From NCBI GenBank assembly GCA_029204225.1, contig CM055099.1, positions 48,534,141 through 48,598,140 of the forward strand: a stretch of 64,000 nucleotides of DNA, given 5' to 3'. The notes beneath the pieces are model-generated. The model did no database searches, was not told the origin of the DNA, and saw only the letters and a list, made by a program, of their open reading frames with translations. This DNA is from Diphasiastrum complanatum (Eukaryota; Streptophyta; Lycopodiopsida; Lycopodiales; Lycopodiaceae). The position numbers were made by a program, and so were the translations under genes. The first letter of the stretch is position 1. Each line of letters starts with the position of its first letter. Of the stretch, positions 3,944-59,982 are shown one piece after another.

Positions 3944-4995
3944 TGTGAAAGATTTCAGATCATTATGATCCAATCTACTTGAATGATCTTTGGTTAGAAA
4001 GAGAAATACACTACCATCCTCACTATCAATCTCACCAATGTAGAAAAATCAGCATCTACACACAAAATGAGATGCAAACACTAATAGAACTAAGCATGAA
4101 ATGAGATAGAGAAGAGAGAAGATAGCTCTCTCCATGAGTTACATCCTTTTATAGCAGGTCCACCAAAATGTGAAAAATGCAAAAATAAGCTTGGTAGAGG
4201 CCAAAAATCTTGTATATAGATAAACACACATGTGTGGATCCTGTTCCCACATGTGAAACTAGTGTACTTGTCATGTACCATAATCATATATGTTGTACAT
4301 ATGATTTAATTCACGTTCTAGTGGCTAAAATGGCCAAAAACTAGTTTTCTAGACATATGACACATGGCATCAATCTATTGATTGCATGAGCCACATCCTT
4401 TGGTTAGGTGTCATATCCCATGTGTAGAGGACAACTCACACGTGTGGAATAAGCTGAGGCGAATTTTGACTTCTAGAAGATTTCCAAGTAGATCTCCATA
4501 TAGAAGGAAAATGGACCAAAAGTGCTCAAAATAGAAGCTTTTGTCCAACTGTCAATTTTGCATGATGAATCATTATATGACAAAGCACCTTCACACATGT
4601 GGGATCAGAGGGATGATCAGTACCATGAGCTCTCACTTATTGTATATATAGAGCCACATTTGGCCATAATCATTGTGAGACACGAATCTTGGTTTTGGAA
4701 GCAATTTTGTGTCAATCTCTCCATTTGTCTTGATTTTTTTTGAATATTTTGAGTTTCTATCATAGTGTACATGATTTTCAGGTTGGAGTCTGTACTCTGA
4801 CAGGGTTTCACACGTGTGAAACCATCAAGTACATTTACCTTAATTAATGATTGTTCTTGTTAGGATTTTGTGTCTAGAATTGACCTAGATTGATCTTCAT
4901 CTCAAGTAGATTGATAGATCAAGTACTCTGACAACCAATCCCTCTTGAGGATCAGATTAGGATACACTCTTGGTCCTTTTTATACTTTTTCCACA
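3944..4995. mobile_element. Abutting LTRs of D (minus) and G (plus)
   Basis: A minus-strand primer-binding site ends at 3943 and a plus-strand one begins at 4996, so this interval must hold the 5' LTR of D and the 5' LTR of G back to back. G's LTR ends in CCACA at 4991-4995. Two CACACGTGTG palindromes sit at 4437-4446 and 4809-4818. I could not find the boundary between the two LTRs because neither has a clear second copy in the window. Confidence 0.5.
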
Positions 4996-8101: not shown

Positions 8102-8465
8102 TGTAAGAGCAAAAGTGATTTGTTCACTCATAGTTGAAAATTTGTATTGAGGCGAATTGTAAACTCTTTATGAGAGTAAGTGAATCATCTTCTAAAGACA
8201 CTTATCTCCTTAATGAAGTATGTAGCCCCATTGGATCTGAGATTAGCATGGTAAACAAGCATGAAGATATGATGCAAACACTTTGTTATTATAGCATGCA
8301 TAGTCTTGCCAATTTGGATGAGTCTAATTGTCTAGATCATGGTAACATGATGTTAGATCTTTGTGATCCTATTAAATCAAGAAGAAATCTTTATTTTCTC
8401 ATGGAGGAGCATCCACATGAAGAAGGAGCAAGCCTCAAGGTCAAGCATCTACATGATATTGATGT
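8040..8465 (+). pseudogene. Second copy of the RT-replacing segment in G
   Basis: After the stop at 8101, homology continues in shifted frames. QMYAL near 8080 matches QKYAL in element F, and from 8145 EANCKLFMRVSESSSKDTY matches EANCKLLLRLSEASKVDTY of F. The segment is open to about 8465 and then runs into unrelated sequence. At least one frameshift and one stop separate it from the first ORF, so it is not translated as part of that frame. Confidence 0.6.
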
Positions 8466-15100: not shown

Positions 15101-16132
15101 CAAAGTGAATATGATCCCACTCTTTACATTAAGTTTGATGATGTTGGTATTGTACTTTTACTCATTTGTGTAGATGACATCATCATTAGTGGAAATAGTA
15201 TTGATGGTATTGAAAAAATCAAGATAGATCTATCCTTAGAGTTCAAGATGGTAGATCTAGGGTGTCTTCACTTCATCTTAGGCATAGAAGTACTTAGAGG
15301 GTCTGATTTTATCTTTATAAGTCAAGTAAACTATGCTCAAAGTCTTTTGAAGAAGTTTAAGATGGAAGTATGCAAAAGTGTTGACACACCAATGGAGCAA
15401 GATGTAAAAGTGCCAAATGAAGATGATGAAAGATCCTTCATGGACATCACTTTGTTTAGGCAACTTATAGGTTCCTTAATGTGGATCACTATAACTAGAC
15501 CAGATCTTAGCTTTAGTGTATGTAGGTTGAGCCAATCCATGCAAAAGCCATTGAATATCCATTGGAAAAAGGCTAAGAGGATTCTAAGATACATCTCGGG
15601 TACATTGGATTTTGGGATTCTATATAGAGGAGATGTGATTAACCTTCATGCATTTAGTGATTCAGATTTTGCAGGGGACAAGAGGGATAGGAAATCAACA
15701 AGTGCCTATTCAACTTTCATAGGAGAAGGTGTGGTTTCATGGCTTTCAAAAAAGCAAGAAACTATATCTCTATCTTCAACCGAGGCCGAGTACAAAGCTT
15801 TGACAACCACTACAAAGGAGGTACTTTGGATCAAGAGATTATTGGTGGAACTAAAGATCATGGATTCAGAGGAGGCACCAATCATCTACAATGACAATAT
15901 ATCAGCCCAACACCTTGCATCTAACCCAATCTTCCATGCAAGATCTAAGCACATTGAGATATGCCATCACTTTGTGAGAGAAATGGTGCAAGCCAAGGAG
16001 ATTGCTTTGGAGCATGTTCCAAGCAATGAATGTGTAGCTGATCTACTTACTAAACCACTTCAAAAGACACCTTTTATGAAGTTCAGATCATCACTTGGAG
16101 TGATTAGTAAAGCAATGATTGAACCAAGCTAG
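12167..16132 (+). CDS. Gag-pol polyprotein of copia element A
   Basis: A single open frame of 1321 residues has the full copia order. The gag domain occupies about residues 1-210, followed by the CCHC zinc knuckle CYYCSKMGHYASEC at 256-269. The aspartic protease has DSGASSH from 313, and the pre-integrase HKRLGH is near 445. The integrase catalytic residues are in HSDVH, FIDDYSRY, LRSDNGGEF and NGVAERRNRT (about 505-610). Reverse transcriptase follows from about 850 with KHKARLVAKGYAQ and YGLKQA, and RNase H has SDSDFAGD and SSTEAEYKAL. It encodes the particle protein and all enzymes for reverse transcription and integration. The RT active-site box reads CVDD (residue 1001) instead of the usual YVDD; both aspartates remain. 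The frame is intact, so it may be functional, although its 3' LTR is interrupted. Confidence 0.93.
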   Translation: MASINAYLLDTNERLNKTNYSIWKVRMESIMIMQDLMEIVNGKEGEPIHPQEKAKYIKRCNVALHCIKMNVANELLREVGDCTSAQDAWETLQKVYESKNQTRMLALKNQIYRSYQKKGESAHTFVLRVKELNKELAFIGDPIKDEELVQLILNGLSFEFDNLVQGYAIMGKLPILEELQGTLMAEESRRSQMQERMDRLSIQGGDDQALFTKGKGKSKGKGSTFKKSTKLEDQEGPPKATPSTTKVKKDKSKVKCYYCSKMGHYASECFKRKQDQSQANMSKEEEESSHEDSLMMSIFSSTSFKGEDPWWIDSGASSHMTSKREFFSSLLSYDGPIKSIYTANDEACKIEGVGSIPLCLGSSKKINIEGVLYIPTITKNLLSVGQMVDNGFNVDFASNECFIKKKGKIVAKGTRLGKLYKLDAFVDTNVVMLAEKSKISTFTLWHKRLGHVNSGSMEAMIKEEYALGLPRSIGKEDKVCEACALSKAHKKVFPSSITKSSHPLELIHSDVHIASTKSNGGSSMFLTFIDDYSRYCWVFLLSFKSQVFDTFVKFKLFVEKHHNHSIKILRSDNGGEFISNEFKAFCEEEGIKKETSCPYTPQQNGVAERRNRTLCECSKALRLDACLPKSFWGESLVCANYLMNRVSCKAIEGKTPYEMLYGKKPNLNHLKVFGCICYVHVPLETRTKEDPSSTRRIMLGYASSSKGYKVYLPSLNKFVVSRDVIFDEHHMHMLEEGSSAPTIKKKMAEEQDLGFEEELMEEQAPNPPITPRRSSRAKVEPSRLTYQGKGQQVEGISSTSYALSSFEEPSNVEDALNSKEWYKAMLDEYDALIENETWLLVERPQRNVIGCKWVFKLKLNANGSVNKHKARLVAKGYAQERGIDYEETFAPVAKMVTIRLIIALASHFGWILCQMDVSNAFLNGFLEEDIYMEQPQGFIKHGMENKVCHLQRSIYGLKQASRSWNSRLHCYLISLSFVQSEYDPTLYIKFDDVGIVLLLICVDDIIISGNSIDGIEKIKIDLSLEFKMVDLGCLHFILGIEVLRGSDFIFISQVNYAQSLLKKFKMEVCKSVDTPMEQDVKVPNEDDERSFMDITLFRQLIGSLMWITITRPDLSFSVCRLSQSMQKPLNIHWKKAKRILRYISGTLDFGILYRGDVINLHAFSDSDFAGDKRDRKSTSAYSTFIGEGVVSWLSKKQETISLSSTEAEYKALTTTTKEVLWIKRLLVELKIMDSEEAPIIYNDNISAQHLASNPIFHARSKHIEICHHFVREMVQAKEIALEHVPSNECVADLLTKPLQKTPFMKFRSSLGVISKAMIEPS

Positions 16133-17636: not shown

Positions 17637-20600
17637 CTAACTTGGCAAATCTAGTGTACATCTATCTACAATTCCAAGAGCATATCTTAACTTAAAAAAT
17701 GGATCTTTGGACAATGGTTTGGTTAAGATATCAGCTATGCATTCGGATGATGGTACATGATGTAGTTGCACTTCCTTGGATTGTACCTTCTCCCTCACAA
17801 AGTGGTGAGCTATCTCAATATGCTTTGTTCTAGCATGGAAGATAGGATTTGAAGCAATTTGTTGAGAAGCTTGATTGTCACAAAATATGTAAGGGATCTC
17901 CTCGGCCTCTAGCACATGTAGTTCCATCAAGAGTCTTCTTAGCCATAAGAGCTCTTTGGTTGTTGAAGTCAATGCCTTGTACTCGGCTTCACAAGAAGAT
18001 AGTGAGATTGTATCTTGCTTTTTGGAAAGCCAAGATATCACTCCTCCACAAAGAAATGTTGCAAATGCACTAATGGACTTCCTATCCATCTTGTCACCTG
18101 CAAAATCTGAATCCGAGTAGGCTCTCAAGTGCAAGTTAGATCCTTCATAAAGTATACCAAAAAATCTAGTACTAGAAACATATCTAAGTACTCTCTTGGC
18201 ACTTTTCCAATGATGAATTAAAGGAGCTTGCATACTTTGACTCAACTTGCTTACACAAAAACTTAAGTCAGGTCTAGTGATGGTTAAATAGATTAGAGAG
18301 CCTATAAGCTTCCTAAAGAGAGTGATGTCCTCAAAGGATGCTTCATCACCTTCATTAGTTGCTTTCACAACATGCTCCATAGGGGTGTCAATCCCCTTAC
18401 AATCTTTCATACCAAATCTTTCAAGAATGGAAGTAGCATACTTAGATTGACTTATGAAAGTACAATTGCTACTTCTAGACACTTCTATCCCAAGTATAAA
18501 CTTTAGGAAGCCTAGATCTACCATCTTGAACTCACTAGATAAGTCAACTTTTACTTTGCCTATGCCATCATCATCATTTCCTGTCATAATGATGTCATCA
18601 ACATAAAGAACCAAAATGATGATCTTTCCTTCATTACATTTGAAATATAAAGAAGGTTCATAAGCACTTAGTACAAAGCCAAGGGAATAGAGAAAATCAT
18701 GCAACCTAGAGTACCAAGCTCTAGGTGCTTGCTTCAAGCCATATAGGCTCTTCCTTAAGTAGCACACCTTTTGCTCCTCACCAATCTTGATGAAGCCCTC
18801 GGGTTGCATCATGTAGATTTCCTCTTCTAAGAAGCCATTCAAGAAGGCATTTGTCACATCCATTTGGTAGAGATCCCATTTGAACAAAGTAGCAATGCAA
18901 ATGATTAATCTAATAGTTACAAGCTTAGCTACAGGTGCAAATGTTTCTTCATAATCCAATCCTTTTATTTGAAGAAATCCCTTAGCAACAAGCCTAGCTT
19001 TGTATTTACTAATAGATCCATCTTGATTGTACTTAATTCTATAAATCCACTTACATGCAAGTGGTTTCTTTCCTCTTGGAAGATTTACAAGATTCCAAGT
19101 ATGATTTTCTTCTAATGCATCATACTCTACTTGCATTGCATCTCTCCAAACTTTAGATTTACATGCTTCTTCAAAAGATGATGGTTCTTCAATCAATGTA
19201 GCTAAAAAAGAGTAAGAGGTAGAAGATGTAGAGCCTTCCTTTTGCTTTCCCTTGTCCACATAGGTAAGCCTTGAGGGCTCGGCCTTGCTCCTTGATGATC
19301 TTCTTGGCCCCTTTTGACTTGGATCCAAATCTCCATCCTCGGGTTTGTCATGATCCTCCTCGGGTTTGTCAAGATCCTCCTCGGATTTGTCAAGATCTTC
19401 AATGCACAATGGGTTAGATCCATTTGACAAGCTCTTAGCAAATTGTGACTCATCAAAAAGTACATCCTTGCTTACCTTTACTTTCTTGGATGTAGGATCA
19501 TATATCCTATATCCCTTGCTATTTTCTCCATAGCCAACAAAGATTCCTTTGAAGGAGGTAGCATCTTCTTTCCTTCTAGTCTCCAAAGGAATGTGTACAT
19601 AACAAGTACATCCAAAGATCTTAAAATATTTTACATTGGGTTTCTTATCAAACAAGGCTTGATAAGGTGAGATCCCATCTATAGCACTACTAGGAAGTCT
19701 ATTACACAAATAATTAGCACATGTTATGGCTTCTCCCCAAAATGAGATGGGAAGTGATGCATCAAGCCTCAAGGACTTTGCACACTCACATAGACTCCTA
19801 TTTTTCCTCTCGGCCACCCCATTTTGTTGAGGGGTGTAGGAACAAGTGTATTGTAACTTAATACCATTGATCTCACAAAAGTCTTTCATTTTATTGGAGG
19901 TGTACTCTCCTCCATTATCACATCTTAGTGCTTTGATAGAAGTACTAAGTTGTTTCTCTACTAGAGACTTGAACTTAATGAAAGCTTCATAAACAAGATT
20001 TTTCTTTGATAGTAACTCAATCCATGTGAATCTAGTACAATCATCTATAAAAGTTACATACATCAAGGCACCTCCATTACTTGCATGTGAAAAACTATGT
20101 ACATCAGAATGTATGAGATCCAAGGGAGAGAGAGATCTTGATGAAGATTTCTTGTAAGAAGATTTGTGTGACTTTGCAAGGCCACATGCCTCACACATTT
20201 TTCCACACTTCTTGAAAGCTCTTGGTAGGCCGAGAGCTAGTTCCTTGCTTGCCATTGACTCCATAGATTGAAGATTAGGATGGCCTAATCTCTTATGCCA
20301 AAGCTCCACTTGAGTTAGCTCCTCCCTAGCCAAGTTCACACTTTCACTTGCAACATTAGCATCCAACTTGAAAAGTCTCCCTTGCTTAATGCCACTAGCT
20401 ATGCACTTATCATTTTTCAAGATGGAACAAACTCCATTCTTGAAATGTACATCTAGTCCATTGTCCATTAATTGTCCTACACTAAGCAAGTTTCTTGAAA
20501 TGGTAGGAACATACAAAACATTATCTAGATCTATCCTTTTAGATGTGCCTAAACAAAGAGGTATAGATCCTATGCCATCTATCTTGCATGCTTGATCACT

Positions 20601-47520: not shown

Positions 47521-48083
47521 AATGTTTGTAGAATTTGTTTTGTGGATCGATAGCCCCTGGTGAACAAAGTGCATTGGTTTGTAGAGAAGGTCTTTAGCAT
47601 CCATGTTAGTCCACTCCAATCTGCATTTGCTAATTTTGTGCATATTAGAACTATACATTAGAAAAGCGGTTATGCAAAGTGTGCATCTGAAAAAAGATCC
47701 GTAAAAAAGCACCTGTAGAGAGACGTTGTAGGATGAGTAACATACTTGCAATGGGAAGGATGGCATGAGCGTAGGATAAGCGATGAGCAAAACCATGGGC
47801 AGTGAATCCATGGGCAATAAACGCCAGCGACGAGCGAACCCATGAACAAAGCAGGATGAACCTGTGGCCAGAAGCGAAGTGTGATTCAGTAGCATAGAAG
47901 GCAGAAGCACGTTCCAGCAGTACAAGACAGAAACGCGATCCAAGAGTAGGCTGAAACACGTCCAAGCAGCACTCAAAGTGCGATCCAGAATCGAGCGATG
48001 AGCTCCAGCAGGTAGAAGCACCCTGAGCGTGTTCTGAAAGGAGAAGGAGGAACGAACATGCAGCACCCTGATCGTGTTCTAAG
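47521..48083. other. Non-coding flank of element F
   Basis: No gene is supported. The stretch contains loosely repeated phrases such as CACCCTGAGCGTGTTCTG and CCTGATCGTGTTCT that recur after element F at 59983-60140. The host locus was therefore a low-complexity, partly tandem sequence before F inserted. The 186-residue minus-strand frame here has no recognisable homology and lies across these repeats. Confidence 0.45.
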
Positions 48084-49298
48084 TGTGAGAAATTGGCAAA
48101 AATCTAGCTTGGTATTTTTTATGATAGAAGTTTGTAAGTGAATCTCACATGTGTGGAGGATGTTCCCACGTGTGGACAATTGTAAAGTAAATCAAAATGT
48201 TTGATATAGGGGTCTCATAGAATTTCATAGTCAAGCATTTAGGTGTAGGATGTTGATAGGATCAAATTTGGCATAGATGGCAAATTATCCATTTCCACTT
48301 GTAATGCCAATATTGAGCCAAACTTGTGTCAATTAGAGTGTAGACAAGTGTCATGCTTTTGTTTGATGAAGCTTAAGAGGTCCAATAGGATTTAGAGGTG
48401 GAAACTTGTGAGGTCCAATAGAAAATTGAGGTGTGCTTGAATATAGTCCAATAGAATTTAGAGGTGCATGGATCAATGGTCCAATAGGATTAAGAGGTGG
48501 CAAAGTGTGATCCAATCATAGTTAAGCATAGTGGTAGCTCATGAATCTATTAGTATCATTGTACTCCTCCTTTTGGATCTAATTGATTTTGAGATTGAGT
48601 GGATTTTGAGTGTCATTGAATTTCTAGCTTTCTCTCTCTACCCGAGAGCTCATGATGGTTTTTCTCTCTCTACCAGAGGAGAGCAGCTTTTTATCCATTT
48701 CCACTTGTAATGCCAATATTGAGCCAAACTTGTGTCAATTAGAGTGTAGACAAGTGTCATGCTTTTGTTTGATGAAGCTTAAGAGGTCCAATAGGATTTA
48801 GAGGTGGAACCTTGTGAGGTCCAATAGAAAATTGAGGTGTGCTTGAATATAGTCCAATAGAATTTAGAGGTGCATGGATCAATGGTCCAATAGGATTAAG
48901 AGGTGGCAAAGTGTGATCCAATCATAGTTAAGCATAGTGGTAGCTCATGAATCTATTAGTATCATTGTACTCCTCCTTTTGGATCTAATTGATTTTGAGA
49001 TTGAGTGGATTTTGAGTGTCATGGAATTTCTAGCTTTCTCTCTCTACCCGAGAGCTCATGATGGTTTTTCTCTCTCTACCAGAGGAGAGCAGCTTGTTTT
49101 TACTTAGAATACTTTTGGAACACTTCCCACACGTGTGAGTGAGAGTTGGAAGTGATTGAATGCATGTAGTAGTGTGTTTTTGCCATAGGATACAAGATTG
49201 ATCTTGAATCTCAATCTAGTCTTGATCTTGGTGCATCTACACACCTTAGGAGATCACAAGTACATGTAGTGGACAGTCCACACGTGTAAAATTCAACA
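48084..49298 (+). repeat. 5' LTR of element F with internal tandem duplication
   Basis: It begins TGTGAGAAATTGG and ends TTCAACA. A block of about 406 bp (48285-48690) is repeated directly at 48691-49096. The copies differ at only a couple of bases, and the 3' LTR has only one copy. CACACGTGTG is at 49128-49137. Confidence 0.93.
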
Positions 49299-50055
49299 TG
49301 GTATCAGAGCCTACCTAAGGTTACCATGCATTTTGATCCATTTGAGTGAAAACTATTCATCAATCTTGAGCTAGAAATTGTCAAGGCCCATTTTCCTAGC
49401 TATCTTGTTCAATTTTGGATCAAAAGAGATCAAAAGGACATTGATTGGGTCTGACCTGGTACTGTACGGAATCAGGTTCTCAGACACGTGTGAGGAACAT
49501 CCAATTTCAGTTTGGGATTTCTCTTTCATGTTTGATCCAAAAATCTTGCTAGATAGCTTGTTTTAAAGCTATTTTTGTCTAGTTTCTGATGCAATTAGTT
49601 TCATTCCATTTGGTTGAGCCAATCAAAAGTTATAAGATTTTGAAGAGGGTTAGGTAGGGCACCTAGACCTGGGTGGACACATTTGGTTTGGTCAAAAGAT
49701 TGCTTGTTTGATCTAAAATCACAGTTGAATGCTTACCAATCTCATCTATATGTGATCTAGGCACTGTTTTGAGATCTTAGCCATTTTGTTTCATGCAATA
49801 TCATTGTATTTGAGTCAAATTTGGTTTCTTAGTGTATTTTACACGTGATAAGAGTGTTTGATCCTAACTTTGCCCATACTCCATCATTTGATGTGAAGTA
49901 GATCTAGTTTTGGAGAGATTGAGATAGCTAGTGAGAATCATCTCACAGTTTGTTGCAAGATCTTGCATAGGAGATGGTAGCACACCATTATTGGATCCTA
50001 TAGTGAGAGAGAAGCAACATTTTTTGTTCATCAATTTTATTTATCTCCACTTTAC

Positions 50056-50752
50056 ATGACTTCAATGAGTTCATACTTGTTGCAACCAAGTGAGAGATTG
50101 TCTACTTCCAATTATTCAATATGGAAGTTGAGGACGGAGTCCATCTTGATACTCCAAGATGTGATGGACATTGTACTTGGGATTGAGGAGGAGCCTCAAG
50201 TCCTTCAAGAAGTACAAAAATACAAGAAGAGAGCTAGGATGGCTCTCCACTACATTAAGATGAATGTCTCTAATGAGATATTGAGGGAGATTGGTGATTG
50301 TTCTACATCCAAGGAATCTTGGGATTGTCTCAAGTCCATCTATGAGGCTAAGAACACCTCTAGGCTCCTCACTCTTAGAAATAAAATATTCCAAAGTAGT
50401 CAAAAGAGTGATGAGAGTGCATCTAATTATGTTTTGAGAGTCAAGGATATTCATAGGGAGCTTGCATGTATTGGTGACTCAATCAATCAAAGTGAGCTAG
50501 TCCAAGTCATTCTCAATGGCTTGAGAGATGAATATGACAACCTTGTCCAATCCTATGCTATTAAGGAGGAGCTACCAAGTTTATTTCTGAAGAATCAAGA
50601 CAAGAGTACAAACTCTTGAGGATGGACAAGCTATCACTCAATCATGATGATGGCAAAGTTCTATTTGCCAAGCACAAAGAAAGGAGTAAGAAGCAACACC
50701 ATCACTTCTCTAATGACAAAGCTAAAGACCAAGATGGAGAGGAGGAGGATAC
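50056..50752 (+). pseudogene. Gag of element F, N-terminal part
   Basis: It starts MTSMSSYLLQPSERLS with the copia gag (UBN2-type) domain through VQVILNGLRDEYDNLVQSYA. A small deletion with frameshift near 50582 causes the stop at 50619. Homology continues in another frame (EESRQEYKLLRMDKLS) up to the insertion of E after GATAC at 50748-50752, and resumes in frame at 57184. Confidence 0.85.
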
Positions 50753-51407
50753 TGTGAAAAATACAGATCCTAAGTGGATCTAAACTCCAAGATCATTGGC
50801 TTGAATGCTTGCACTCCAAACTACATAAGCTAGGAATTGGCAACACATTCTATGCTACCTAGAATGCAAAGAACTTGATCAAAAAGCATTTATCACAAAT
50901 GGAAACTTCCATAAACATCAAGTGTGGCCCAAAATAGCATTATACAGTCCATAATACATCAGCCTATCACTTTTGGAAAGCACCTAAGATCATACACAAT
51001 AGCTTGAAGACAATACACACAACAATGCTCTCACTGGAGGAAGAAACAATGACAATGATCTATTGATCTCAATGAAGCATACAAAAGGTTTCTCCAACCT
51101 ATTCTCCACGACTTCCCTACTATTTATGGATGAGGAAGATGACTCTCTCTCCTCTCTCTAGAAGGTACTTGACCCTAGATATTCCCTATATAGGAAAAAT
51201 AGCTAAAAATGGCTTATATGACCAAAATACATCAAAATGGTCTCATTTTGAAGGGTATGAAGTTTGACACTTCATCATACTGAAAAAATACAGTAAATAA
51301 AAACATTGTGGCCTGGTTCACACGTGTGAAACTCCAGAACCAAAACTATTTACAATTTTAGCCAATTTAGGCCTCAAACTAGCTAGGAAATGTTGACAAT
51401 TTTCACA
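50753..51407 (-). repeat. 3' LTR of element E
   Basis: 655 bp, matching 56529-57183 with three visible differences. CACACGTGTG is at 51319-51328. Confidence 0.95.
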
Positions 51408-54400
51408 CTCCCTCTTCAACATTGGATGCTAGTTTCAACATAGTCTTTGAGCACATTACAAGATTAGATCTATGCATTAAATATAGGTCCTTTCCCAATG
51501 GTTTGGTGAAGATATCAGCCACACACTCCTTTGAAGAGACATGTTGAAGCTCCACCTCTTTGGCAATGACTTGATCTCTCACAAAATGGTGAGCAATCTC
51601 AATGTGCTTGCTCCTTGCATGAAAAACAGGATTGCTTGCCAAGCTTTGGGCTGAAAGGTTATCACAAAGTATGATTGGAGTCTTCTCTGGTTCCAGCAAG
51701 TGAAGATCCAATAACATCCTCTTGATCCAAAGAATCTCCTTGGTGCATGTTGTTAATGCCTTGTACTCGGCTTCGGTGGAAGATAGAGAGATAGTTGGTT
51801 GCTTCTTTGATAGCCATGAGACCACTCCATCTCCAAGATAGATTGCAAAGGCACTTGTTGACTTCCTATCCATTTGATCACCTGCAAAATCTGAATCTGA
51901 AAATCCACAAAGGTTAGGTGTAGTACCTCCATACAAGATGCCAAAATCTCTAGATCCCGAGATGTATCTAAGTACTCTCTTTCCTAGCTTCCAATGAGCC
52001 TCACTAGGATCTTGCATAAATTGACTTAGTTTACCAACCACAAAGCTTAGATCAGGTCTTGTGATGGTTAACCATATAAGAGATCCTATTAGCTTTCTAT
52101 AGAGAGTAATGTCCTTGAAGGATCTTTCATTACTTCTTGTAGTTAGCTTTACATTTGATTCCATAGGAGTAGAAACAACTTTACAATCTTCCATATGAAA
52201 CCTTTTTAGAATAGAGTTAACATACTTTTCTTGACATATGAATGTAGATTTAGAAGTTCTAATAATCTCTATTCCTAAGATATAATGAAGTTTACCAAGA
52301 TCTTGAATTTCAAACTCTCTTTTGAGTGCCATCTTGATTTCATCTATATCTAGATTGTTACCACCACTTAAGATAATGTCATCAACATAGATCAAAAGTA
52401 AAGTGATATCATTTTCATTCAATCTAAAGTAGAGAGAATGATCATACTCACTCATAACAAAGTTTTGAGAAAGTAAGAAGGAATTGAGCTTAGCATACCA
52501 ACTCCTTGGTGCTTGCTTTAGCCCATACAAACTCTTTTGGAGATAGCACACATGATTAGGCTCATCATGTGAAACATAGCCCTCGGGTTGCTCCATGTAA
52601 ATATCTTCTTCAAGATCACCATTCAAGAAGGCATTAGTAACATCCATTTGCCACATATCCCAATCATAAAGAGTTGCAAGAGAGATTAGGATTCGAATAG
52701 TTACCATCTTTGCCACGGGTGCAAAGGTCTCATCATAGTCAATACCATATTCTTGAGCATACCCCTTTGCCACCAACCTTGCCTTGTACTTGTTGATTGA
52801 TCCATCTTGATTTGTCTTGATCTTGAAGATCCACTTACAACCAATTGCCTTCTTGTCCTTTGGAAGCTTTACCAACCTCCATGTGTTGCTTTTGATGAGT
52901 GCTTGATGCTCATGATCCATGGCTTGGATCCATTCCTTCTTTTGAATTGCTTCACCTACACAAGTTGGTTCATCAAAAGAGGTAAGAAAAGCAAAGTTAG
53001 AGTTGTCCACCACTTGCTTTCCTTTTTCATCATAGGTTAGCCTTGATGGCTTAGCCCTTTGCCTTTGAGTCTTCCTTGAAGTTTGCTTTGGAGTGGCATC
53101 TCCATCTTCATCCAAGACATCTTGCACATCATGATGATTAGTAGGCACATCAACATCAACATCAACAACATTGGAAACATTCTCTTCATGAAAGATGACA
53201 TCCCTACTTATGACAACTTTCTTTGTAGAAGGAATGTACACTTTGTAAGCCTTGCTTACTTCACTATAGCCAACAAACACACCCTTCTTTGATGAAGGAT
53301 CTTCTTTAGTTCTATCATCAAGTGTGATATTGACAAAACATGTACATCCAAAGATCCTACAATGCTTGACACTCGGCCTTCTACCATAAAGAACCTCATG
53401 AGGAGTTTTACCATCCAAGGAAGCACTTGTCCATCTATTACATAGATAGTTAGCACATGCTAAAGCTTCCCCCCAAAAAGACTTAGCAAGATTAGCATGT
53501 AGTCTCATTGCCTTGGCACATTCACAAAGGGTTCTATTCTTCCTCTCGGCCACTCCATTCTGTTGTGGAGTCCTAGGACTAGACATCTCCCTCTTAATCC
53601 CATGTGCTATACAAAAGTCTTTGAACCTATTTGAGGTGTATTCCCCTCCATTATCAGATCTTAAGCATTTGATCTTTGTATTGAATTGGTTTTCCATTTC
53701 ATTCTTGAACTTGACAAATGCAGCAAACACTTCATCCTTACTTTTAAGAAGATAGATCCAAGTATACCTACTAAAGTCATCAATGAAAGTTGCATACATC
53801 TTTGCCCCACCATTGCTAGTTGTACTAGAAGAATGAATATCAGAATGCACAAGTTGAAAAGCTTCTTTAGATCTAGAAGTAGATCTAGAATAAGCAAGTC
53901 TATGAGATTTGGACAAGGCACAATGTTCACAAACACTATTGTTTGCAACAAGACTTTTAGGGAGACCAAGAACAAGCTCTTTCTTTGCCATTACCTCCAA
54001 AGATTTGAAGTTGGGATGGCCCAACCTCTTGTGCCAAACTTCTTGGTTTGTCAATTGCTCCCTAGCCATACATCCTTCATGATTAGAGATCACACATGCA
54101 TCAAGCTTGAAAAGTTTACCATGCCTCCTACCTTGAGCAATCAAGGATCCACATTTACTTATCAAACATGCATCTCCAATGAACTCCACATCAAGTCCTT
54201 TGTCAATCATTTGACTTACACTAAGCAAATTCTTAGTGATTGAAGGAATGTACAAGACATTTTCAAGATTTGCTTTCCTATTTGTTGAAAGGGAAATAGG
54301 AATAGTGCCTATGCCTTTGATGTCACATTGACCATCATTTGCAGTGTAGATGATGTTACCTTCTCCCTCATAAGACAATAAGGATGTAAAGTATTCCTTA

Positions 54401-55356
54401 TGTCTTGTCATGTGAGATGAGGCTCCACTATCAATCCACCAAGGATCATTATCATCTATGTTGGCTAACAAACTTGAAGTCATAACAAGTGATTCACATG
54501 TGTTATGTTCTTCCTCATCTATTGTAAGATTTCCTTGCCTCTCTCCTTGCTCTCTTTTCTTCTTATAACATTCATTTGCAAAATGACCTTTTATCCCACA
54601 ATAAAAGCACTTGAACTTTGACTTATTGTTCTTAGTAGAAGAGGAAGAGGAAGAGTGATCATCATGATCAAAGTTACCACCTTTGGACCATTTCCCTTTG
54701 CCTTTACCTTTGCCCTTGAATTTGCCTTTTGTGAAGAAAGCCTCTTCACCTCCACCTTGCAAGGATGCACCATCAAGCTTTGATTGCAACCTATGTTCTT
54801 CAGCCAATAAGATTTCTTGCAAGTCAACCACACTTGGCAAGACTCTTTGAATGGCAAAACTTTGCACAAGGTTAGCATGTTCATTTAGCAAACCATTCAA
54901 CATAACTTGGACTATTTCACCATCTTTTATGTTCTCATCAATGCATGCTAAATCATCACTTAGGGACTTAACTCTCAAGATAAATGCATGAGCACTTTCA
55001 CCCTCTCTTTGCCTACTAGAAAATATTTGTCTCCTTAGGGTCAATACCCTAGATGTGGACTTTGATTCAAAGAGCTTCTTTAAGGCATTCCATGCCTCAC
55101 TTGCACTTTGACACTTTCCAACTTCCTTGAGAAGTTCATTTGTAACATTCATTTTAATGATATGAAGAGCCCTTTTGGCCTTCTTATCAAACCTTTGTTG
55201 CTCTTGAAGTGTGAGAGGTCTCTCTTCAATTTCTGCAACTATGTCCATGAGTTCATTCAACTCAAGTAAGGACTCCATCCTCACTTTCCAAGTAGAGTAG
55301 TTTGATGAACTCAACCTTTCACTAGACTCTAGCATGATCCCACCATTGGAAGCCAT
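51403..55356 (-). CDS. Gag-pol polyprotein of copia element E
   Basis: An intact 1317-residue frame on minus, starting MASNGGIMLESSERLSS. Gag is followed by a zinc knuckle CFYCGIKGHFANEC near residue 250 and protease DSGASSH from 309. Integrase has HKRLGH, HSDIHS, FIDDFSRY, LRSDNGGEY and NGVAERKNRT. RT has KYKARLVAKGYAQ, YGLKQAPRSWY and YVDD at about 990. RNase H has SDSDFAGD and SSTEAEYKAL and ends with HARSKHIEI. All expected catalytic motifs are present, so it may be functional. Fragment D (2104-3345) is a close relative. Confidence 0.95.
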   Translation of the reverse strand: MASNGGIMLESSERLSSSNYSTWKVRMESLLELNELMDIVAEIEERPLTLQEQQRFDKKAKRALHIIKMNVTNELLKEVGKCQSASEAWNALKKLFESKSTSRVLTLRRQIFSSRQREGESAHAFILRVKSLSDDLACIDENIKDGEIVQVMLNGLLNEHANLVQSFAIQRVLPSVVDLQEILLAEEHRLQSKLDGASLQGGGEEAFFTKGKFKGKGKGKGKWSKGGNFDHDDHSSSSSSTKNNKSKFKCFYCGIKGHFANECYKKKREQGERQGNLTIDEEEHNTCESLVMTSSLLANIDDNDPWWIDSGASSHMTRHKEYFTSLLSYEGEGNIIYTANDGQCDIKGIGTIPISLSTNRKANLENVLYIPSITKNLLSVSQMIDKGLDVEFIGDACLISKCGSLIAQGRRHGKLFKLDACVISNHEGCMAREQLTNQEVWHKRLGHPNFKSLEVMAKKELVLGLPKSLVANNSVCEHCALSKSHRLAYSRSTSRSKEAFQLVHSDIHSSSTTSNGGAKMYATFIDDFSRYTWIYLLKSKDEVFAAFVKFKNEMENQFNTKIKCLRSDNGGEYTSNRFKDFCIAHGIKREMSSPRTPQQNGVAERKNRTLCECAKAMRLHANLAKSFWGEALACANYLCNRWTSASLDGKTPHEVLYGRRPSVKHCRIFGCTCFVNITLDDRTKEDPSSKKGVFVGYSEVSKAYKVYIPSTKKVVISRDVIFHEENVSNVVDVDVDVPTNHHDVQDVLDEDGDATPKQTSRKTQRQRAKPSRLTYDEKGKQVVDNSNFAFLTSFDEPTCVGEAIQKKEWIQAMDHEHQALIKSNTWRLVKLPKDKKAIGCKWIFKIKTNQDGSINKYKARLVAKGYAQEYGIDYDETFAPVAKMVTIRILISLATLYDWDMWQMDVTNAFLNGDLEEDIYMEQPEGYVSHDEPNHVCYLQKSLYGLKQAPRSWYAKLNSFLLSQNFVMSEYDHSLYFRLNENDITLLLIYVDDIILSGGNNLDIDEIKMALKREFEIQDLGKLHYILGIEIIRTSKSTFICQEKYVNSILKRFHMEDCKVVSTPMESNVKLTTRSNERSFKDITLYRKLIGSLIWLTITRPDLSFVVGKLSQFMQDPSEAHWKLGKRVLRYISGSRDFGILYGGTTPNLCGFSDSDFAGDQMDRKSTSAFAIYLGDGVVSWLSKKQPTISLSSTEAEYKALTTCTKEILWIKRMLLDLHLLEPEKTPIILCDNLSAQSLASNPVFHARSKHIEIAHHFVRDQVIAKEVELQHVSSKECVADIFTKPLGKDLYLMHRSNLVMCSKTMLKLASNVEEGV

Positions 55357-56528
55357 GATTCTAATGTTTCTTCAACTTTTAGGTTCTGTCCTAAAGCACT
55401 TAGAACTCACTTTTCTCTCAACAAATGATAGATAAAGAGATCTATGAAGATTTAGGACCCTAAAACACTTCTATCTTGAACCTAGATGGTTTCCAAGCAT
55501 AGAAAGGAAGATTGAAACACATGCAACACTTTGCACACACTAAGAATGGATTACAAAATCAAACCAACCTGAACACACTCTTGCTTAAGCTCTCAAACTT
55601 TCCAGCAAGTGACCAAATCAAGTTATGGTGTGAAGAGTTACTTGCATTCTTAGAAAATACCCAAAACTAGGATGCCAAGATTACCTAGTAATGAACAAAC
55701 TTGATCAACATATGATCAACACACTAAGATATTGATTCAACCTGTAAAACCACATGTAAACCACACTTCTAAAAGTTTATAAACTCCAGCAAGTGATAAA
55801 TACAAGATTTAGAGGTGAATGAATGAGCACACTTAGTGAATCACAAGACTAGCTTCACTATCTTGTCAAATCTTGGTGTTTAGATGTAGATCTAAGATCA
55901 CTTCACATGAGAATGTTCCTCAACCTGTTAAGAACCTGAAAACACACTTGCATAATGGTTAACACCTTCCAGCAAATGCTCCAATCAAATTACATAAGGA
56001 GAGTTACTTACATGCTCAACAAAGTACACCAAAATTTATGCCAAAATTGATGACAATCTTTACAATATGCTCTTCACAATGGAGCTTACAATATGTTCAC
56101 CCAAAAAAGGGGATCTTTCATCCAAATGGGAGCTTTGCTCAGCCTTTAGGAGAATTACAACTCACTCAAAAGAGCATTTGTCATCCACTTAAGGAGAAGT
56201 TTCATCCACTTAAGGAGAGTGTTCATCCAAGAATGGAGATTGTCAACAATAGGATTGAAAAGAACATTGTTAGTATTGAATATGCACAAGCCTCACAATC
56301 ACAAATGATTAGGTGTTATGATCTGATCCAAAATAGTTTCTTTTCAGCCTCTGATCTTCAATAGACCTGAAATATGCTTTTGATCCACAAGTTCAACTCA
56401 CAAAACAAAGGTTAGTAAGATTTGATCAACAAAGCAATGCAAAATCATGCTAGAACTTGATCAAACATCCAAATATCACCAAAAATGGAATACTTACTGT
56501 AAATAGAAGCCAACCAGCTCTGATACCA

Positions 56529-57183
56529 TGTGAAAAATACAGATCCTAAGTGGATCTAAACTCCAAGATCATTGGCTTGAATGCTTGCACTCCAAACTAC
56601 ATAAGCTAGGAATTGGCAACACATTCTATGCTACCTAGAATGCAAAGAACTTGATCAAAAAGCATTTATCACAAATGGAAACTTCCATAAACATCAAGTG
56701 CGGCCCAAAATAGCATTATACAGTCCATAATACATCAGCCTATCACTTTTGGAAAGCACCTAAGATCATACACAATAGCTTGAAGACAATACACACAACA
56801 ATGCTCTCAATGGAGGAAGAAACAATGACAATGATCTATTGATCTCAATGAAGCATACAAAAGGTTTCTCCAACCTGTTCTCCACGACTTCCCTACTATT
56901 TATGGATGAGGAAGATGACTCTCTCTCCTCTCTCTAGAAGGTACTTGACCCTAGATATTCCCTATATAGGAAAAATAGCTAAAAATGGCTTATATGACCA
57001 AAATACATCAAAATGGTCTCATTTTGAAGGGTATGAAGTTTGACACTTCATCATACTGAAAAAATACAGTAAATAAAAACATTGTGGCCTGGTTCACACG
57101 TGTGAAACTCCAGAACCAAAACTATTTACAATTTTAGCCAATTTAGGCCTCAAACTAGCTAGGAAATGTTGACAATTTTCACA
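56529..57183 (-). repeat. 5' LTR of element E
   Basis: 655 bp, with the primer-binding site at 56517-56528 on its inner side. CACACGTGTG is at 57095-57104. The E-like remnant at 1356-1978 is a diverged copy. Confidence 0.95.
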
Positions 57184-58947
57184 GATACCTCTCATGCTTC
57201 TAATTCAAATCTCAAGAAGAAGATGATCAAGTGCTTTTATTGTGGCAAGAAAGGCCATTATGCCACCAATTGCTTCAAGAAGAAAAATCAACTCAATCAA
57301 GCCAACATCACCAATGAGAAAGAAGACTATATTGCAAGTGATGGAGAAGGCTCTCTTATGGCATCAAGCTTCTCCTCTTCCACCTTCAACAAGGATGACT
57401 CATGGTATATTGATAGTGGAGCATCTTCACATATGTGTGGCTCCAAGCACTTTTTTTCATCTATTATGTCTTATGATGGAGTCAAGAAGACCATATACTT
57501 TGCAAGTAAGCATGAGTGCAATATTGAAGGAGTAGGGATTATTCCCTTGAAGCTTGCATCTTCTAAAGATCTCTTTCTCAACAATGTTCTTTTTGTCCCA
57601 AAGCTTACAAAGAACATCTTAAGTGTTGGCCAACTTCTTGATAGTGGCTTTGATGTCAATTTCAATATTGACAATTGTGTGATTAAGAAGGATGGTGAGA
57701 TCCTTGCATATGGATCAAGATTTGAAGGCACCTACAAATTGGATCCAAGTGAGAATGCAAACTCTCTTGATGTTTCTTATATGTCCAATATTTCAAAGGA
57801 GGATGATCACACAAGATGCACATATCTTCTCTCTTCAAGTATTATGGTTTATGATTATTCCTTATTATTCAAAGCATATGTTGAGAAGAAATTCTCATTG
57901 AAGATCAAAGCCTTGAGGAGTATTGGAGCTCTTGAAGGAATAGCACCATATGAAGTTTTATTCAAGATGAAGCCTAAGGTTGATCACCTTAGTGAACTTG
58001 GTAGTGCTTGCATTGCACATATTCCCTTGGAAACAAGAAGGAAGGATGATCGAAGCTCATGGATCATGATTGGATACTCATCCATCAAGGAGGCCTTTAG
58101 TGTCTTTACACTCTCTATTTCAAATGTGATCGTGAATAGAGATGTCATATTGCATGAAGATTCAATCTTGGAAGTGGCCGAGATCAAGACTTCTCAAGAA
58201 GCATCACAAGTTATCCTTTTTGAAGGTATTCAAGTTATGATGGGGCCAATGTGTGAGGAGGAGTTTCTTCTTCGTATGATTTCAAGAAGATCTTCAAGAT
58301 GCATGGCCGAGTCTTTATGGCTCACCTTACATGGCAAAGAGGGGCATCTTTCATGTTGTATCTACTACAACACATTCATATATGCTTCTCTTCCTTTGCT
58401 TGAAATGCTATCTTGCTTCATTGAATTTTTTGGATCTCAAAGTTCAAGAAAAGCTATACTAGTTTTGTATGATGCTTATGGTATGGACATGTTTCTTGTC
58501 ATTATTGACTTAGATGTGTTTCCAATAATTTTTGAAAGCAAGATATTGTATTGTCAAAAGTATGCTCTTGGTTCTAGTAAGAACAAGATTGAGCTTGGTA
58601 CTCACTTTTTTGAAAATCATGTTTTCACATGTTTTGAGGCAAATTGTAAACTCCTCTTGAGATTAAGTGAAGCATCCAAAGTGGACACTTACATCCTTGA
58701 GAGAGTAACTAGCCTAAAAAAGATCAAGATGGTCTTTGATATCAAGATTAGATCCATCATGGATATAGTTCATTGTATGTGGACTAGTCAAGCTAGAAAG
58801 CATAATCTTGATAATCATCATTGTTTCACATCTTATGATCTTGATCTCCATGATCCTTATGAGGCTTGGAAGCCTCAGATTTCTCTATTTATGGTGCATC
58901 CATCATGCAAGTGGAACTTTCAAGGCAAAGATCATCATCAAGCATAA
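57184..58947 (+). CDS. Element F ORF: zinc knuckle, protease, then unknown segment
   Basis: This is the continuation of F's ORF after E. The first in-frame ATG of the open stretch (57166) lies in E's LTR and is not biological. It has a zinc knuckle CFYCGKKGHYATNCF, then protease DSGASSHMCG and LSVGQLLDSGF. Integrase is collapsed to a short linker (KIKALRS joined to LEGIAPYEVLF and HIPLETRRKDD). A pre-RT linker follows (RRSSRCMAESLWLTLHGKEG ... SSRKAILVLYDA). From about 58489 to 58880, where RT should begin, there is an unrecognised segment with EANCKLLLRLSEASKVDTY, shared with element G. The frame is open to its stop although no RT or RNase H remains. Function unknown. Confidence 0.75.
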   Translation, partial: DTSHASNSNLKKKMIKCFYCGKKGHYATNCFKKKNQLNQANITNEKEDYIASDGEGSLMASSFSSSTFNKDDSWYIDSGASSHMCGSKHFFSSIMSYDGVKKTIYFASKHECNIEGVGIIPLKLASSKDLFLNNVLFVPKLTKNILSVGQLLDSGFDVNFNIDNCVIKKDGEILAYGSRFEGTYKLDPSENANSLDVSYMSNISKEDDHTRCTYLLSSSIMVYDYSLLFKAYVEKKFSLKIKALRSIGALEGIAPYEVLFKMKPKVDHLSELGSACIAHIPLETRRKDDRSSWIMIGYSSIKEAFSVFTLSISNVIVNRDVILHEDSILEVAEIKTSQEASQVILFEGIQVMMGPMCEEEFLLRMISRRSSRCMAESLWLTLHGKEGHLSCCIYYNTFIYASLPLLEMLSCFIEFFGSQSSRKAILVLYDAYGMDMFLVIIDLDVFPIIFESKILYCQKYALGSSKNKIELGTHFFENHVFTCFEANCKLLLRLSEASKVDTYILERVTSLKKIKMVFDIKIRSIMDIVHCMWTSQARKHNLDNHHCFTSYDLDLHDPYEAWKPQISLFMVHPSCKWNFQGKDHHQA

Positions 58948-59169
58948 AGGAAGCCCATGATAATAGTGGCATATTGGTGGAGCACTCTTCAAAGGCATTG
59001 GCAAGAGATCTCTACCAAAGAGATCTTATCATGGATATGGTGAGGGTGCTGCTATGATGGATCCCTTGGCTGATCTTTACATCTTATGCATACCAAAGGA
59101 TCCACTCAAAAAGAGTTACAAACTTCTCAAGTGATCTAGTACCTTTCCAAGCTATTTTTTGAGGAGGAG

Positions 59170-59977
59170 TGTGAGAAATTGGCAAAAATCTAGCTTGGTA
59201 TTTTTTATGATAGAAGTTTGTAAGCGAATCTCACATGTGTGGAGGATGTTCCCATGTGTGGACAATTGTAAAGTAAATCAAAATGTTTGATATAGGGGTC
59301 TCATAGAATTTCATAGTCAAGCATTTAGGTGTAGGATGTTGATAGGGTCAAATTTGGCATAGATGGCAAATTATCCATTTCCACTTGTAATGCCAATATT
59401 GAGCCAAACTTGTGCCAATTAGAGTGTAGACAAGTGTCATGCTTTTGTTTGATGAAGCTTAAGAGGTCCAATAGGATTTAGAGTGGAACCTTGTGAGGTC
59501 CAATAGAAAATTGAGGTGTGCTTGAATATAGTCCAATAGAATTTAGAGGTGCATGGATCAACGGTCCAATAGGATTAAGAGGTGGCAAAGTGTGATCCAA
59601 TCATAGTTAAGCATAGTGGTAGCTCATGAATCTATTAGTATCATTGTACTCCTCCTTTTGGATCTAATTGATTTTGAGATTGAGTGGATTTTGAGTGTCA
59701 TTGAATTTCTAGCTTTCTCTCTCTACCCGAGAGCTCATGATGGTTTTTCTCTCTCTACCCGAGGAGAGTAGCTTGTTTTTACTTAGAATACTTTTGGAAC
59801 ACTTCCCACACGTGTGAGTGAGAGTTGGAAGTGATTGAATGCATGTAGTAGTGTGTTTTTGCCATAGGATACAAGATTGATCCTGAATCTCAATCTAGTC
59901 TTGATCTTGGTGCATCTACACACCTTAGGAGATCACAAGTACATGTAGTGGACAGTCCACACGTGTGAAATTCAACA
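59170..59977 (+). repeat. 3' LTR of element F
   Basis: 808 bp, TGTGAGAAATT ... TTCAACA, with TSD CTAAG following. CACACGTGTG is at 59807-59816 and 59958-59967. It has a single copy of the block duplicated in the 5' LTR. Confidence 0.95.
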
Positions 59978-59982
59978 CTAAG

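What the first reader, a model, noticed from the sequence alone, without database searches (positions are those of the whole stretch)
58489..58880. A conserved unknown coding segment replaces reverse transcriptase in non-autonomous copia elements
In element F the frame runs normally through zinc knuckle, protease and the linker before RT, then enters about 130 codons that are not RT. The same segment, with the core CKLL-R-SEASKVDTYI, is in element G at the equivalent place. It aligns over about 60 residues before the core and about 70 after it, and it has stayed largely open. Shared position and conservation suggest a lineage of non-autonomous elements propagating an extra segment, perhaps captured host sequence or a new non-coding or protein function.
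Basis: partly seen in the sequence, partly recalled or inferred. Interest (0 to 1): 0.72.

Follow-up and report, generated by a model that had tools for sequence, protein, structure and literature searches.

The report
Collapsed transposon polymerase keeping RNA hairpin
The mystery stretch in these plant jumping genes is not a new protein but the shrunken remains of their own copying enzyme, and what has been kept in it is a folded hairpin that related complete elements carry at the same place, perhaps a signal that lets the crippled copies be copied by others.

Summary
In detail: F and G share a homologous open segment (181 aa, 38% identity, E 5e-22), present in thousands of copies. It is not captured host sequence or a new domain but the collapsed RT-RNase H end of copia pol. 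Linker and RT start align to local autonomous pols; the conserved core is the best of 1291 placements on pol, at the RT C-terminus, for F and both G units. Codon positions 1-3 diverge about equally, yet the frame stays open beyond neutral expectation. F's Gag-protease shows no consistent acceleration. The core CKLL-R-SEASKVDTYI is a hairpin of about 60 nt that relatives A, B, C, D and L39 carry at the homologous place inside RT, with compensatory changes (13 of 22 pairs; 0 of 500 shuffles), more stable than most synonymous recodings, and detected by held-out models except in A. Best reading: Gag-protease-encoding non-autonomous elements that kept a hairpin, probably cis-acting, after losing RT. 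Function is untested; arm correction by template switching is the main rival.

The parts
48079..48083 (.). target-site duplication of F, CTAAG (partner at 59978-59982)
48084..49298 (+). 5' LTR of F (longer than the 3' LTR through an internal duplication of about 406 bp)
   Evidence: 98.4-98.7% identity to the 3' LTR in two pieces
49299..49311 (+). primer binding site TGGTATCAGAGCC (initiator tRNA-Met type; that assignment is recalled)
49981..50619 (+). gag frame of F; in this copy it ends early compared with other copies
50748..57183 (-). nested autonomous-type copia element C (1322-aa frame), inserted into F
   Evidence: LTR pair 99.2% identical; flanking GATAC
57226..57276 (+). zinc knuckle of F (zf-CCHC)
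57403..57651 (+). protease region of F (Pol_BBD, DSG motif)
   Evidence: E 1.4e-23 for the whole protein
57793..58164 (+). integrase remnant: core mostly deleted, SH3-like domain kept
   Evidence: SH3_retrovirus E 3.2e-11; tblastn pieces
58282..58569 (+). pre-RT linker and start of RT, decayed
   Evidence: hhalign to 3 local pols E 1.8e-10 over 93 columns
58649..58708 (+). conserved hairpin of F: basal stem, lower stem, 5-nt bulge, 4-bp upper stem, 3-nt loop; encodes ..LLLRLSEASKVDTYI..; homologous to the RT C-terminus (TPMExxVKL..SFxDITLYRxLIGS)
58709..59113 (+). RT end-RNase H remnant: TKEILSWIW near 59010-59040 and LADLYILCIPKDPLKK at 59066-59113, after the stop
   Evidence: collinearity and weak tblastn matches (E 0.66 for the latter); inference
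59155..59169 (+). polypurine tract TTTTTTGAGGAGGAG; its last nine bases GAGGAGGAG are shared with A and B
59170..59977 (+). 3' LTR of F
6572..8101 (+). open frame of element G (this copy): CCHC and integrase remnants, unit 1, linker, start of unit 2
7437..7496 (+). hairpin of G unit 1
8162..8221 (+). hairpin of G unit 2 (weak fold in this copy, z -1.06)
15408..15467 (+). homologous hairpin inside RT of autonomous-type element A
   Evidence: not found by model R3
18305..18364 (-). homologous hairpin inside RT of autonomous-type element B
52089..52148 (-). homologous hairpin inside RT of nested element C
2760..2819 (-). homologous hairpin inside RT of partial element D

Best explanation
The segment is the collapsed reverse transcriptase-RNase H end of copia pol in non-autonomous families. 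F still encodes Gag and protease and would borrow integrase, RT and RNase H from autonomous relatives; G has lost gag too. SHOWN: the pre-RT linker and RT start are recognisable; the core is homologous to the RT C-terminus; the core holds a hairpin of about 60 nt with compensatory changes, which autonomous-type relatives carry at the same place in RT; between families the amino-acid sequence is little constrained although the frame is kept open. INFERRED: the hairpin is a cis-acting signal in the element's RNA or cDNA (for example packaging, dimerisation or a step of reverse transcription) recognised by the helper's machinery, and was therefore kept when RT coding was lost, and doubled in G. 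INFERRED: the frame is kept open because the RNA must be translatable along most of its length (for example to escape nonsense-mediated decay), not because of what the C-terminal peptide does. My own levels: identity as pol remnant 0.95; hairpin a conserved structure 0.9; hairpin cis-acting for mobilisation 0.5; open frame for translatability 0.45.
For: Pol remnant: hhalign P 96.9, E 1.8e-10; G linker vs A E 2e-12, G integrase remnant vs B E 2e-5; the 31-aa core ranks 1 of 1291 pol offsets for F, G1 and G2 each, and at nucleotide level 1 of 3876 in C, 1-2 of 6908 in L39, 1 of 534 in D, 1-17 of about 3900 in A and B, for four sequences. Hairpin: 9 distinct sequences, 85.4% of cells paired against 72.2% shuffled and at most 48.0% slid; 13 pairs with changes on both sides against 7.4 (0 of 500) and at most 5 when slid; covariation 0.393 against 0.180 and at most 0.205. 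Fold z-scores -2.9 to -4.8 in 8 of 9. Synonymous recodings reach the observed stability with p 0.002, 0.012, 0.003, 0.0007 and 0.002 in A, B, C, D and L39. A model from non-autonomous copies alone finds D, B and C at E 8e-8, 5e-6, 1.5e-5; one from autonomous-type copies alone finds G1, F, G2 at E 0.004-0.025. The structure derived from autonomous-type copies is kept in F and G'2 more than neutral drift gives (p 0.0008-0.007). Protein free, frame kept: codon-position identity 0.61/0.62/0.58 for F-G2 against 0.75/0.81/0.43 for gag F-L39; G-G' ORF 0.86/0.89/0.87, 4 of 4 indels multiples of 3 against 4 of 20 in the leader; neutral drift to about the F-G distance gives 13 stops and 0 of 2000 open. 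Gag of F not accelerated against L39, SH3 and linker mostly accelerated. AlphaFold pLDDT 33.6 for the segment, from 3 sequences.
Against: No function was tested. Between the hairpin and TKEILSWIW no profile match to RNase H was found; that stretch is assigned by collinearity. Column permutation of the core reaches its best score somewhere on pol in 233 of 5000. The window's G2 is not unusually stable (z -1.06; 28 of 200 shuffles as good); model R3 did not find A at E up to 1. Counted as D-type pairs kept, A, B and L39 do not clearly exceed recodings (p 0.54, 0.15, 0.06). The number of pair types is not raised (447 of 500 shuffles). Stability of this size is not rare in pol. G-U pairs are rare (1 cell, 5 A-C cells, outside the basal stem), and both strands fold about equally well, so DNA-level or arm-correction processes fit as well as RNA. 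Some omegas point to weak protein constraint: 0.41 before unit 1, 0.43-0.65 in parts of the G ORF, 0.40 in the core for F-G1, and shared variants among F copies in linker plus segment are 6 N to 9 S (about 11 to 4 expected), in a sample chosen by protein similarity. In one comparison F's protease is accelerated (23 against 11 versus A, outgroup C). Five autonomous-type families from one genome is a small sample, and C and D are 76% alike. Another copia lineage lacks the hairpin (0 of 40 stretches).
Confidence: 0.62

Rival explanations
1. Arm correction: the hairpin is an old quasipalindrome in the RT gene whose arms are kept complementary by template switching during reverse transcription or replication, without any function.
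For: Pairs are almost strictly Watson-Crick, with 1 G-U cell outside the basal stem, as expected if one arm is copied from the other. Template switching is reported to create and maintain RNA hairpins (PMC8794818, title and start of abstract in a search listing).
Against: The 5-nt bulge is kept in all ten copies, although arm correction would be expected to remove such asymmetry (inference); in RT the arms must also encode conserved residues; stability exceeds synonymous recodings in five families. None of these excludes it.
Confidence: 0.25
2. The C-terminal peptide has a function (for example in particle assembly), and its sequence is only loosely constrained.
For: Frame kept open beyond neutral expectation, indels in threes, omega 0.65-0.77 in three of four family comparisons, a deficit of shared amino-acid variants in the segment among F copies (6 N to 9 S; biased sample).
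Against: Codon positions 1-3 diverge about equally; G1-G2 omega 0.92; fixed G-G' differences give omega 0.96 over 279 codons and 1.24 in unit 1; no confident fold; no Pfam match to the segment at E up to 10 and no PDB match below E 0.7.
Confidence: 0.15
3. Captured host sequence or a new domain that replaced RT.
For: No RVT_2 match at E up to 10.
Against: Homology to linker, RT start and RT C-terminus in order. Of 100 listed core matches 20 stretches were fetched and all 20 are F or G elements; no free-standing host copy was seen among them.
Confidence: 0.03
4. Plain decay: F and G are defective copies amplified recently, and openness and similarity are leftovers.
For: Variation among 18 distinct F copies is near-neutral in gag-protease and integrase parts, and the 150 scored F copies are 97-100% identical to the query.
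Against: F and G differ at about 40% of sites in the segment and both are open (0 of 2000 in simulation); the segment is shared by elements with unrelated LTRs; a G' copy whose LTR stretches are identical over 577 bp is open over both units.
Confidence: 0.05

Closest known systems
RLG_Sabrina_SA, semi-autonomous Gag-Pro elements of wheat (PMC9744471, passages read)
   Same: LTR elements that encode Gag and protease and lack RT and integrase, so need a helper.
   Different: Sabrina is Gypsy; F is copia, keeps an open decayed pol after the protease, and carries a hairpin homologous to one in RT of relatives. No such hairpin is named in the passages read.
RLG_Quinta with DUF1 (PMC11302176, passages read)
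   Same: Non-autonomous element whose frame is Gag plus a domain of unknown function; the authors have no hint as to its function.
   Different: Gypsy, centromeric. Here the comparable unknown segment is traced to collapsed RT-RNase H. Whether DUF1 is the same kind of thing was not tested.
BARE2 / BARE1 of barley (PMC3735527, passages read)
   Same: Copia pair in which a gag-less partner is packaged in particles and keeps dimerisation and packaging signals.
   Different: BARE2 lacks Gag, F lacks RT and integrase. That the BARE signals lie near the 5' end is recalled, not read; here the conserved structure lies in the RT gene or its remnant, towards the 3' end.
TR-GAG elements (seen only as a search term and in a search listing; definition recalled)
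   Same: Non-autonomous LTR elements with a gag frame.
   Different: F also has protease, an integrase remnant and a long open pol remnant.

Membership tests
Ty1/copia LTR retrotransposon | paired LTRs, 5-bp target duplication, tRNA primer site, polypurine tract | tested here: met
   F: LTR pair 98.4-98.7%, CTAAG on both sides, TGGTATCAGAGCC and GAGGAGGAG
Ty1/copia LTR retrotransposon | integrase before RT; RT of RVT_2 type | tested here: inconclusive
   Order PR-IN remnant-RT remnant seen; RVT_2 itself not detectable in F or G. Relatives A, B and C have long copia-type pol frames
Semi-autonomous Gag-Pro element (Sabrina_SA type) | intact Gag and protease frame, no RT or integrase | tested here: met
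   41 of 150 scored F copies have an 882-aa frame and 59 of 150 at least 860; protease match; most of integrase and the RT palm not found. Activity not tested. Not met by G, in which gag is cut down to a short start
Semi-autonomous Gag-Pro element (Sabrina_SA type) | shares primer site and LTR termini with an autonomous partner | tested here: inconclusive
   TGGTATCAGAGC follows the 5' LTR of F, B, C, L39 and G, and GAGGAGGAG precedes the 3' LTR of F, A and B; LTR bodies match only in short pieces or not at all. No single partner identified
LARD / TRIM (no coding capacity; definition recalled) | internal region without open frames | tested here: not met
   882-aa (F) and 659-673-aa (G, G') frames
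Transduplicated host gene in an LTR element | segment closer to a host gene than to pol | tested here: not met
   Pol homology; no host-like copy in 20 of 20 fetched stretches. The genome's own genes were not searched apart from this
Known RNA family (Rfam 15) | match above gathering score | tested here: not met
   0 matches in the window
cis-acting packaging or dimerisation signal | needed in cis for incorporation into particles | not testable with these tools
   only structure conservation shown

The most novel reading that the evidence does not exclude
A conserved hairpin buried in the RT gene of one plant copia lineage is a cis-acting signal shared by helper and parasite elements. When RT coding was lost, the surrounding peptide was freed, but the hairpin and an open frame were kept, and in G the hairpin unit was doubled. 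The unknown domains reported in other Gag-only or Gag-Pro elements may be the same: decayed, translatable pol carrying hidden cis-signals.
Probability: 0.4. Interest if true: 0.75.

Novelty: new variant of a known kind. Interest (0 to 1): 0.58.

Why it matters
What a non-autonomous LTR element must keep in cis to be mobilised by a helper is poorly known outside a few cases (my general knowledge). Here evolution has done a deletion experiment: after RT coding was lost, the peptide drifted but a 60-nt hairpin and the reading frame did not. That names a small, testable candidate signal and offers an explanation, and a test, for unknown C-terminal domains in other Gag-only elements.

Tried and rejected
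A first alignment of the core by eye to the RT motif FAPVAK..ASKFDWD was dropped: in a local alignment of three 60-aa cores to an RT profile none had its best score there, and only G2 (placed elsewhere) beat most shuffles (1 of 40 as good; F 36 of 40, G1 30 of 40). The later placement (TPMESNVKL..SFKDITLYR) came from weak hits and was then tested, so it was partly post hoc; the held-out models are the cleaner test.

hhalign of the part after the RT start against full pols gave nothing. An overlapping-frame explanation was dropped: the other five frames of F X, G1 and G2 hold 7-34 stops each. A 3710-aa open frame at C7:34201191 lies beside a long run of N in the stretch fetched, so I take it as an artefact. 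Selection inside the F family stayed unclear: near-neutral in gag-protease and integrase parts, a deficit of shared amino-acid variants in the segment, in a sample chosen by similarity to the segment. The RVT_2 genome search (150 of 119352 candidates scored) led to another copia lineage in the stretches I fetched (40 of 150; 31 readable at the expected place, 9 not), useful only as a negative control (0 of 40). Queries with RT of A and B returned 150 of 150 copies at 100% identity, so no new families; the L39 query gave 150 copies at 92-100%, not read further. One stretch was fetched beside its target through my slip in coordinates (L058). Helper identity for F was not settled.
Full report
WHAT WAS CHECKED. 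The finding says that element F runs through zinc knuckle, protease and linker and then enters about 130 codons that are not RT, shared with element G. F's frame is 57163-58947 and G's is 6572-8101. BLASTP joins them over 181 aa at 38% identity, 86 bits, E 5e-22, plus a second stretch of 102 aa (linker), because G holds the unit twice. Pfam finds zf-CCHC, Pol_BBD and SH3_retrovirus in F above cut-off and nothing in G, and no RVT_2 or rve in either at E up to 10.

THE ELEMENTS. F is an LTR element at 48084-59977, flanked by CTAAG, with LTRs 98.4-98.7% identical, a TGGTATCAGAGCC primer site and a GAGGAGGAG polypurine tract. A second copia element, C, sits inside it on the minus strand, flanked by GATAC. 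The gag frame 49981-50619 ends early in this copy. The window lies at G000:C8:48534141-48598140 in a genome of 1.745 Gb.

HOW COMMON. The F segment gave 9880 first-look candidates; 150 were scored, all 97-100% identical over the whole query, 4 of 150 with a stop inside. Of these 150, 41 have a frame of exactly 882 aa and 59 at least 860. The G units gave 10001 and 8396 candidates, 150 scored each. Exact counts are safer: an F-derived 31-mer occurs 469 + 422 times and the 27-mer core shared by F and G 1428 + 1352 times, with 0 control matches. Of the 100 core places listed, 20 stretches were fetched (19 with the core, one beside it by my slip); all 20 match F (5) or G (15) elements, in part or throughout, and 3 of the G ones are a diverged subfamily G' at about 84%. 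The LTRs of F and G show no similarity at E 1e-3, so the segment is shared by separate LTR families. A full G copy (L041) has one 659-aa frame and LTR stretches 97.3% identical. A G' copy (L062) has a 673-aa frame with both units and LTR stretches identical over the 577 bp that were fetched on both sides; a second G' copy fetched (L063) has the frame broken.

WHAT THE SEGMENT IS. Profile comparison with three local pols aligns the linker and RT start (93 columns, P 96.9, E 1.8e-10). G's first part aligns to integrase of B (E 2e-5) and its linker to A (E 2e-12). After the RT start profile comparison is silent. The 31-aa core, however, has its best of 1291 ungapped placements at the same RT C-terminal site (STPMESNVKLTTRSNERSFKDITLYRKLIGS in C) for F, G1 and G2; permuting its columns reaches as good a score somewhere in 233 of 5000 and at that site in 0 of 5000. 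At nucleotide level the same site ranks 1 of 3876 in C for all four sequences tried, 1-2 of 6908 in L39, 1 of 534 in D, and 1-17 of about 3900 in A and B. Intact copies of both families end in a shared ..KE(I/A/T)LSWIW, resembling RNase H TKEILWIKRML of C, and after the stop a weak in-order match to the RNase H end follows (LADLYILCIPKDPLKK, E 0.66). The RT palm and most of RNase H were not found.

SELECTION. In the segment, codon positions 1, 2 and 3 are about equally conserved: 0.61/0.62/0.58 (F-G2, omega 0.65), 0.64/0.58/0.60 (F-G1, 0.73), 0.56/0.63/0.59 (G1-G2, 0.92). Controls in the same call: gag F-L39 0.75/0.81/0.43, zinc knuckle-protease 0.75/0.77/0.40, SH3 0.71/0.72/0.42, linker F-L39 0.48/0.59/0.36, RT A-C 0.71/0.80/0.49. 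Badly aligned codons would push these figures towards equality, so they are upper bounds on freedom. Fixed G-G' differences give omega 0.96 over 279 codons (20 more ambiguous, left out), 1.24 in unit 1, 1.18 after it and 0.41 before it. Two single copies, L041 and L062, give 0.86/0.89/0.87 and omega 0.77, by region 0.43 to 1.68, not significantly below 1 over the whole frame (Fisher p 0.11 on rounded counts). In the 31-codon core omega is 0.40 (F-G1), 0.82 (F-G2) and 0.51 (G1-G2), where pairing also constrains the bases. Yet the frame is kept: neutral drift to about the F-G distance gives 13 stops on average in F's 253 codons and 0 of 2000 open; 4 of 4 ORF indels are multiples of 3 against 4 of 20 in the leader. 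The ORF (87.5% identical) also diverges more slowly than the leader (74.4%), for which exchange between families is an alternative to constraint. On the F branch gag and protease are not accelerated relative to L39 (8 against 10 and 18 against 18 unique changes, outgroup A), while SH3 (21 against 6) and linker (18 against 9) are; with outgroup B the last two differences shrink (15-9, 15-10), and against A with outgroup C the protease is faster in F (23-11). So F's Gag and protease look maintained on the whole, and the rest of the polyprotein looks freer but translatable. Among 18 distinct F copies variation is near-neutral in gag-protease and integrase parts; in linker plus segment shared variants are 6 N, 9 S and 3 stops, in a sample chosen by similarity to the segment.

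THE HAIRPIN. Folding the core of five non-autonomous copies showed a stem with compensated changes. The homologous RT sites of A, B, C, D and L39 fold alike: over 60 aligned, gap-free nucleotides, a basal stem, a lower stem, a 5-nt bulge on the 5' side, a 4-bp upper stem and a 3-nt loop (A: 3 bp and 5 nt). On 9 distinct sequences 85.4% of cells pair; 13 of 22 pairs have changes on both sides (0 of 500 shuffles; slid versions at most 5); the number of further pair types is not raised (447 of 500 shuffles reach it). The basal stem pairs in a register shifted by one in the non-autonomous group, which lowers its score. z-scores are -2.9 to -4.8 in eight of nine; the window's G2 is -1.06. In autonomous-type elements the fold is more stable than synonymous recodings (60 nt: p 0.002, 0.012, 0.003, 0.0007, 0.002 for A, B, C, D, L39; Fisher 4e-9 if the families are taken as independent, which C and D are not fully; 48 nt: p 0.023, 0.095, 0.016, 0.004, 0.037 in the same order). 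By number of D-type pairs kept, only C and D exceed recodings clearly (p 0.0005 each); L39 is 0.057, B 0.15, A 0.54. Stability alone is not rare: 165-304 of about 1300 48-nt windows in the pols of A, B and C, and 271 of 2318 in L39, fold as well. RNAalifold gives the same central structure from either group alone. A model from autonomous-type copies only finds G1, F and G2 at E 0.004, 0.018, 0.025 in 64 kb (and one unrelated place, 9288-9347, at 0.95); a model from non-autonomous copies only finds D, B and C at 8e-8, 5e-6, 1.5e-5, but not A. With the joint model all 12 matches at E up to 1 lie at the seven known sites, 5 of them on the opposite strand. Rfam has no match, and another copia lineage lacks it (0 of 40 stretches). 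The structure derived from autonomous-type copies is kept in F and G'2 above neutral drift, p 0.0008-0.007.

HOW IT PROBABLY WORKS. F encodes Gag and protease, lacks integrase and RT, and shares the primer site, and with A and B also the polypurine tract, so a relative of A, B or L39 is a plausible helper (inference). A and B have at least 150 copies each identical over 85 aa, many with frames of 1322 or 1332 aa. The hairpin was kept when its protein-coding role ended, and G carries two, which is what a cis-acting signal would show. Its step (packaging, dimerisation, reverse transcription) is unknown. The main rival is arm correction by template switching, reported elsewhere to create and maintain hairpins (PMC8794818, search listing only); the scarcity of G-U pairs fits it. 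Why the frame stays open is unproved. Translatability, for example against nonsense-mediated decay, is my inference; the 17 and 20 upstream ATGs in the G and G' leaders are a difficulty for it, although element C has 17 too (F 9, A 5, B 3).

WHAT IS KNOWN. Passages read: wheat Sabrina_SA encodes Gag-Pro and is called semi-autonomous (PMC9744471); Quinta encodes Gag and a DUF1 of unknown function (PMC11302176); BARE2 is packaged in particles and keeps dimerisation and packaging signals (PMC3735527). I saw no report of a conserved hairpin in the RT gene of copia elements in the listings of the searches (open-licence papers only; the lists were capped at 8-15 papers).

Mended: the account of F-family variation, the outgroup-dependent rate tests, regional omegas and the end of the RT-start part.

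Noticed in passing
45484-46895: Array of about 11 copies of a unit of about 120 nt, many with a palindromic stretch like TTGACGGACAACGTCCGTCAA.
   Followed up: no
61520-63680: Small element in which gag, zinc knuckle and protease start are fused to RNase H (62029-62886); RT and the hairpin are absent. A 100% match to its RNase H part was found at only two of 150 scored places, both on C8, one being the window, so this form may not have amplified.
   Followed up: partly
window, G000:C8: Several window sequences have 100% twins about 243-262 kb upstream on the same contig: a segmental duplication or an assembly duplicate.
   Followed up: no
LTR-like regions, near 4810, 11190, 57095, 59960: The palindromic motif CACACGTGTGAA recurs in LTR-like regions of different element families (read by eye); perhaps a shared promoter element.
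   Followed up: no
G000:C8:41305087-41323216 and G000:C10:14770216-14781498: Evenly spaced hits suggest head-to-tail arrays of G (period 4465 bp, five hits) and of B (period 5514 bp, three hits) elements.
   Followed up: no
48285-49098: The 5' LTR of F carries a tandem duplication of about 406 bp that the 3' LTR lacks.
   Followed up: no
L041 1-5183: Identity between G (L041) and G' (L062) is about 0.88-0.91 in most of the ORF, 0.67-0.88 in the leader and 0.45-0.68 in the LTRs (250-nt bins), as if the ORF module had been exchanged between families or were constrained.
   Followed up: partly
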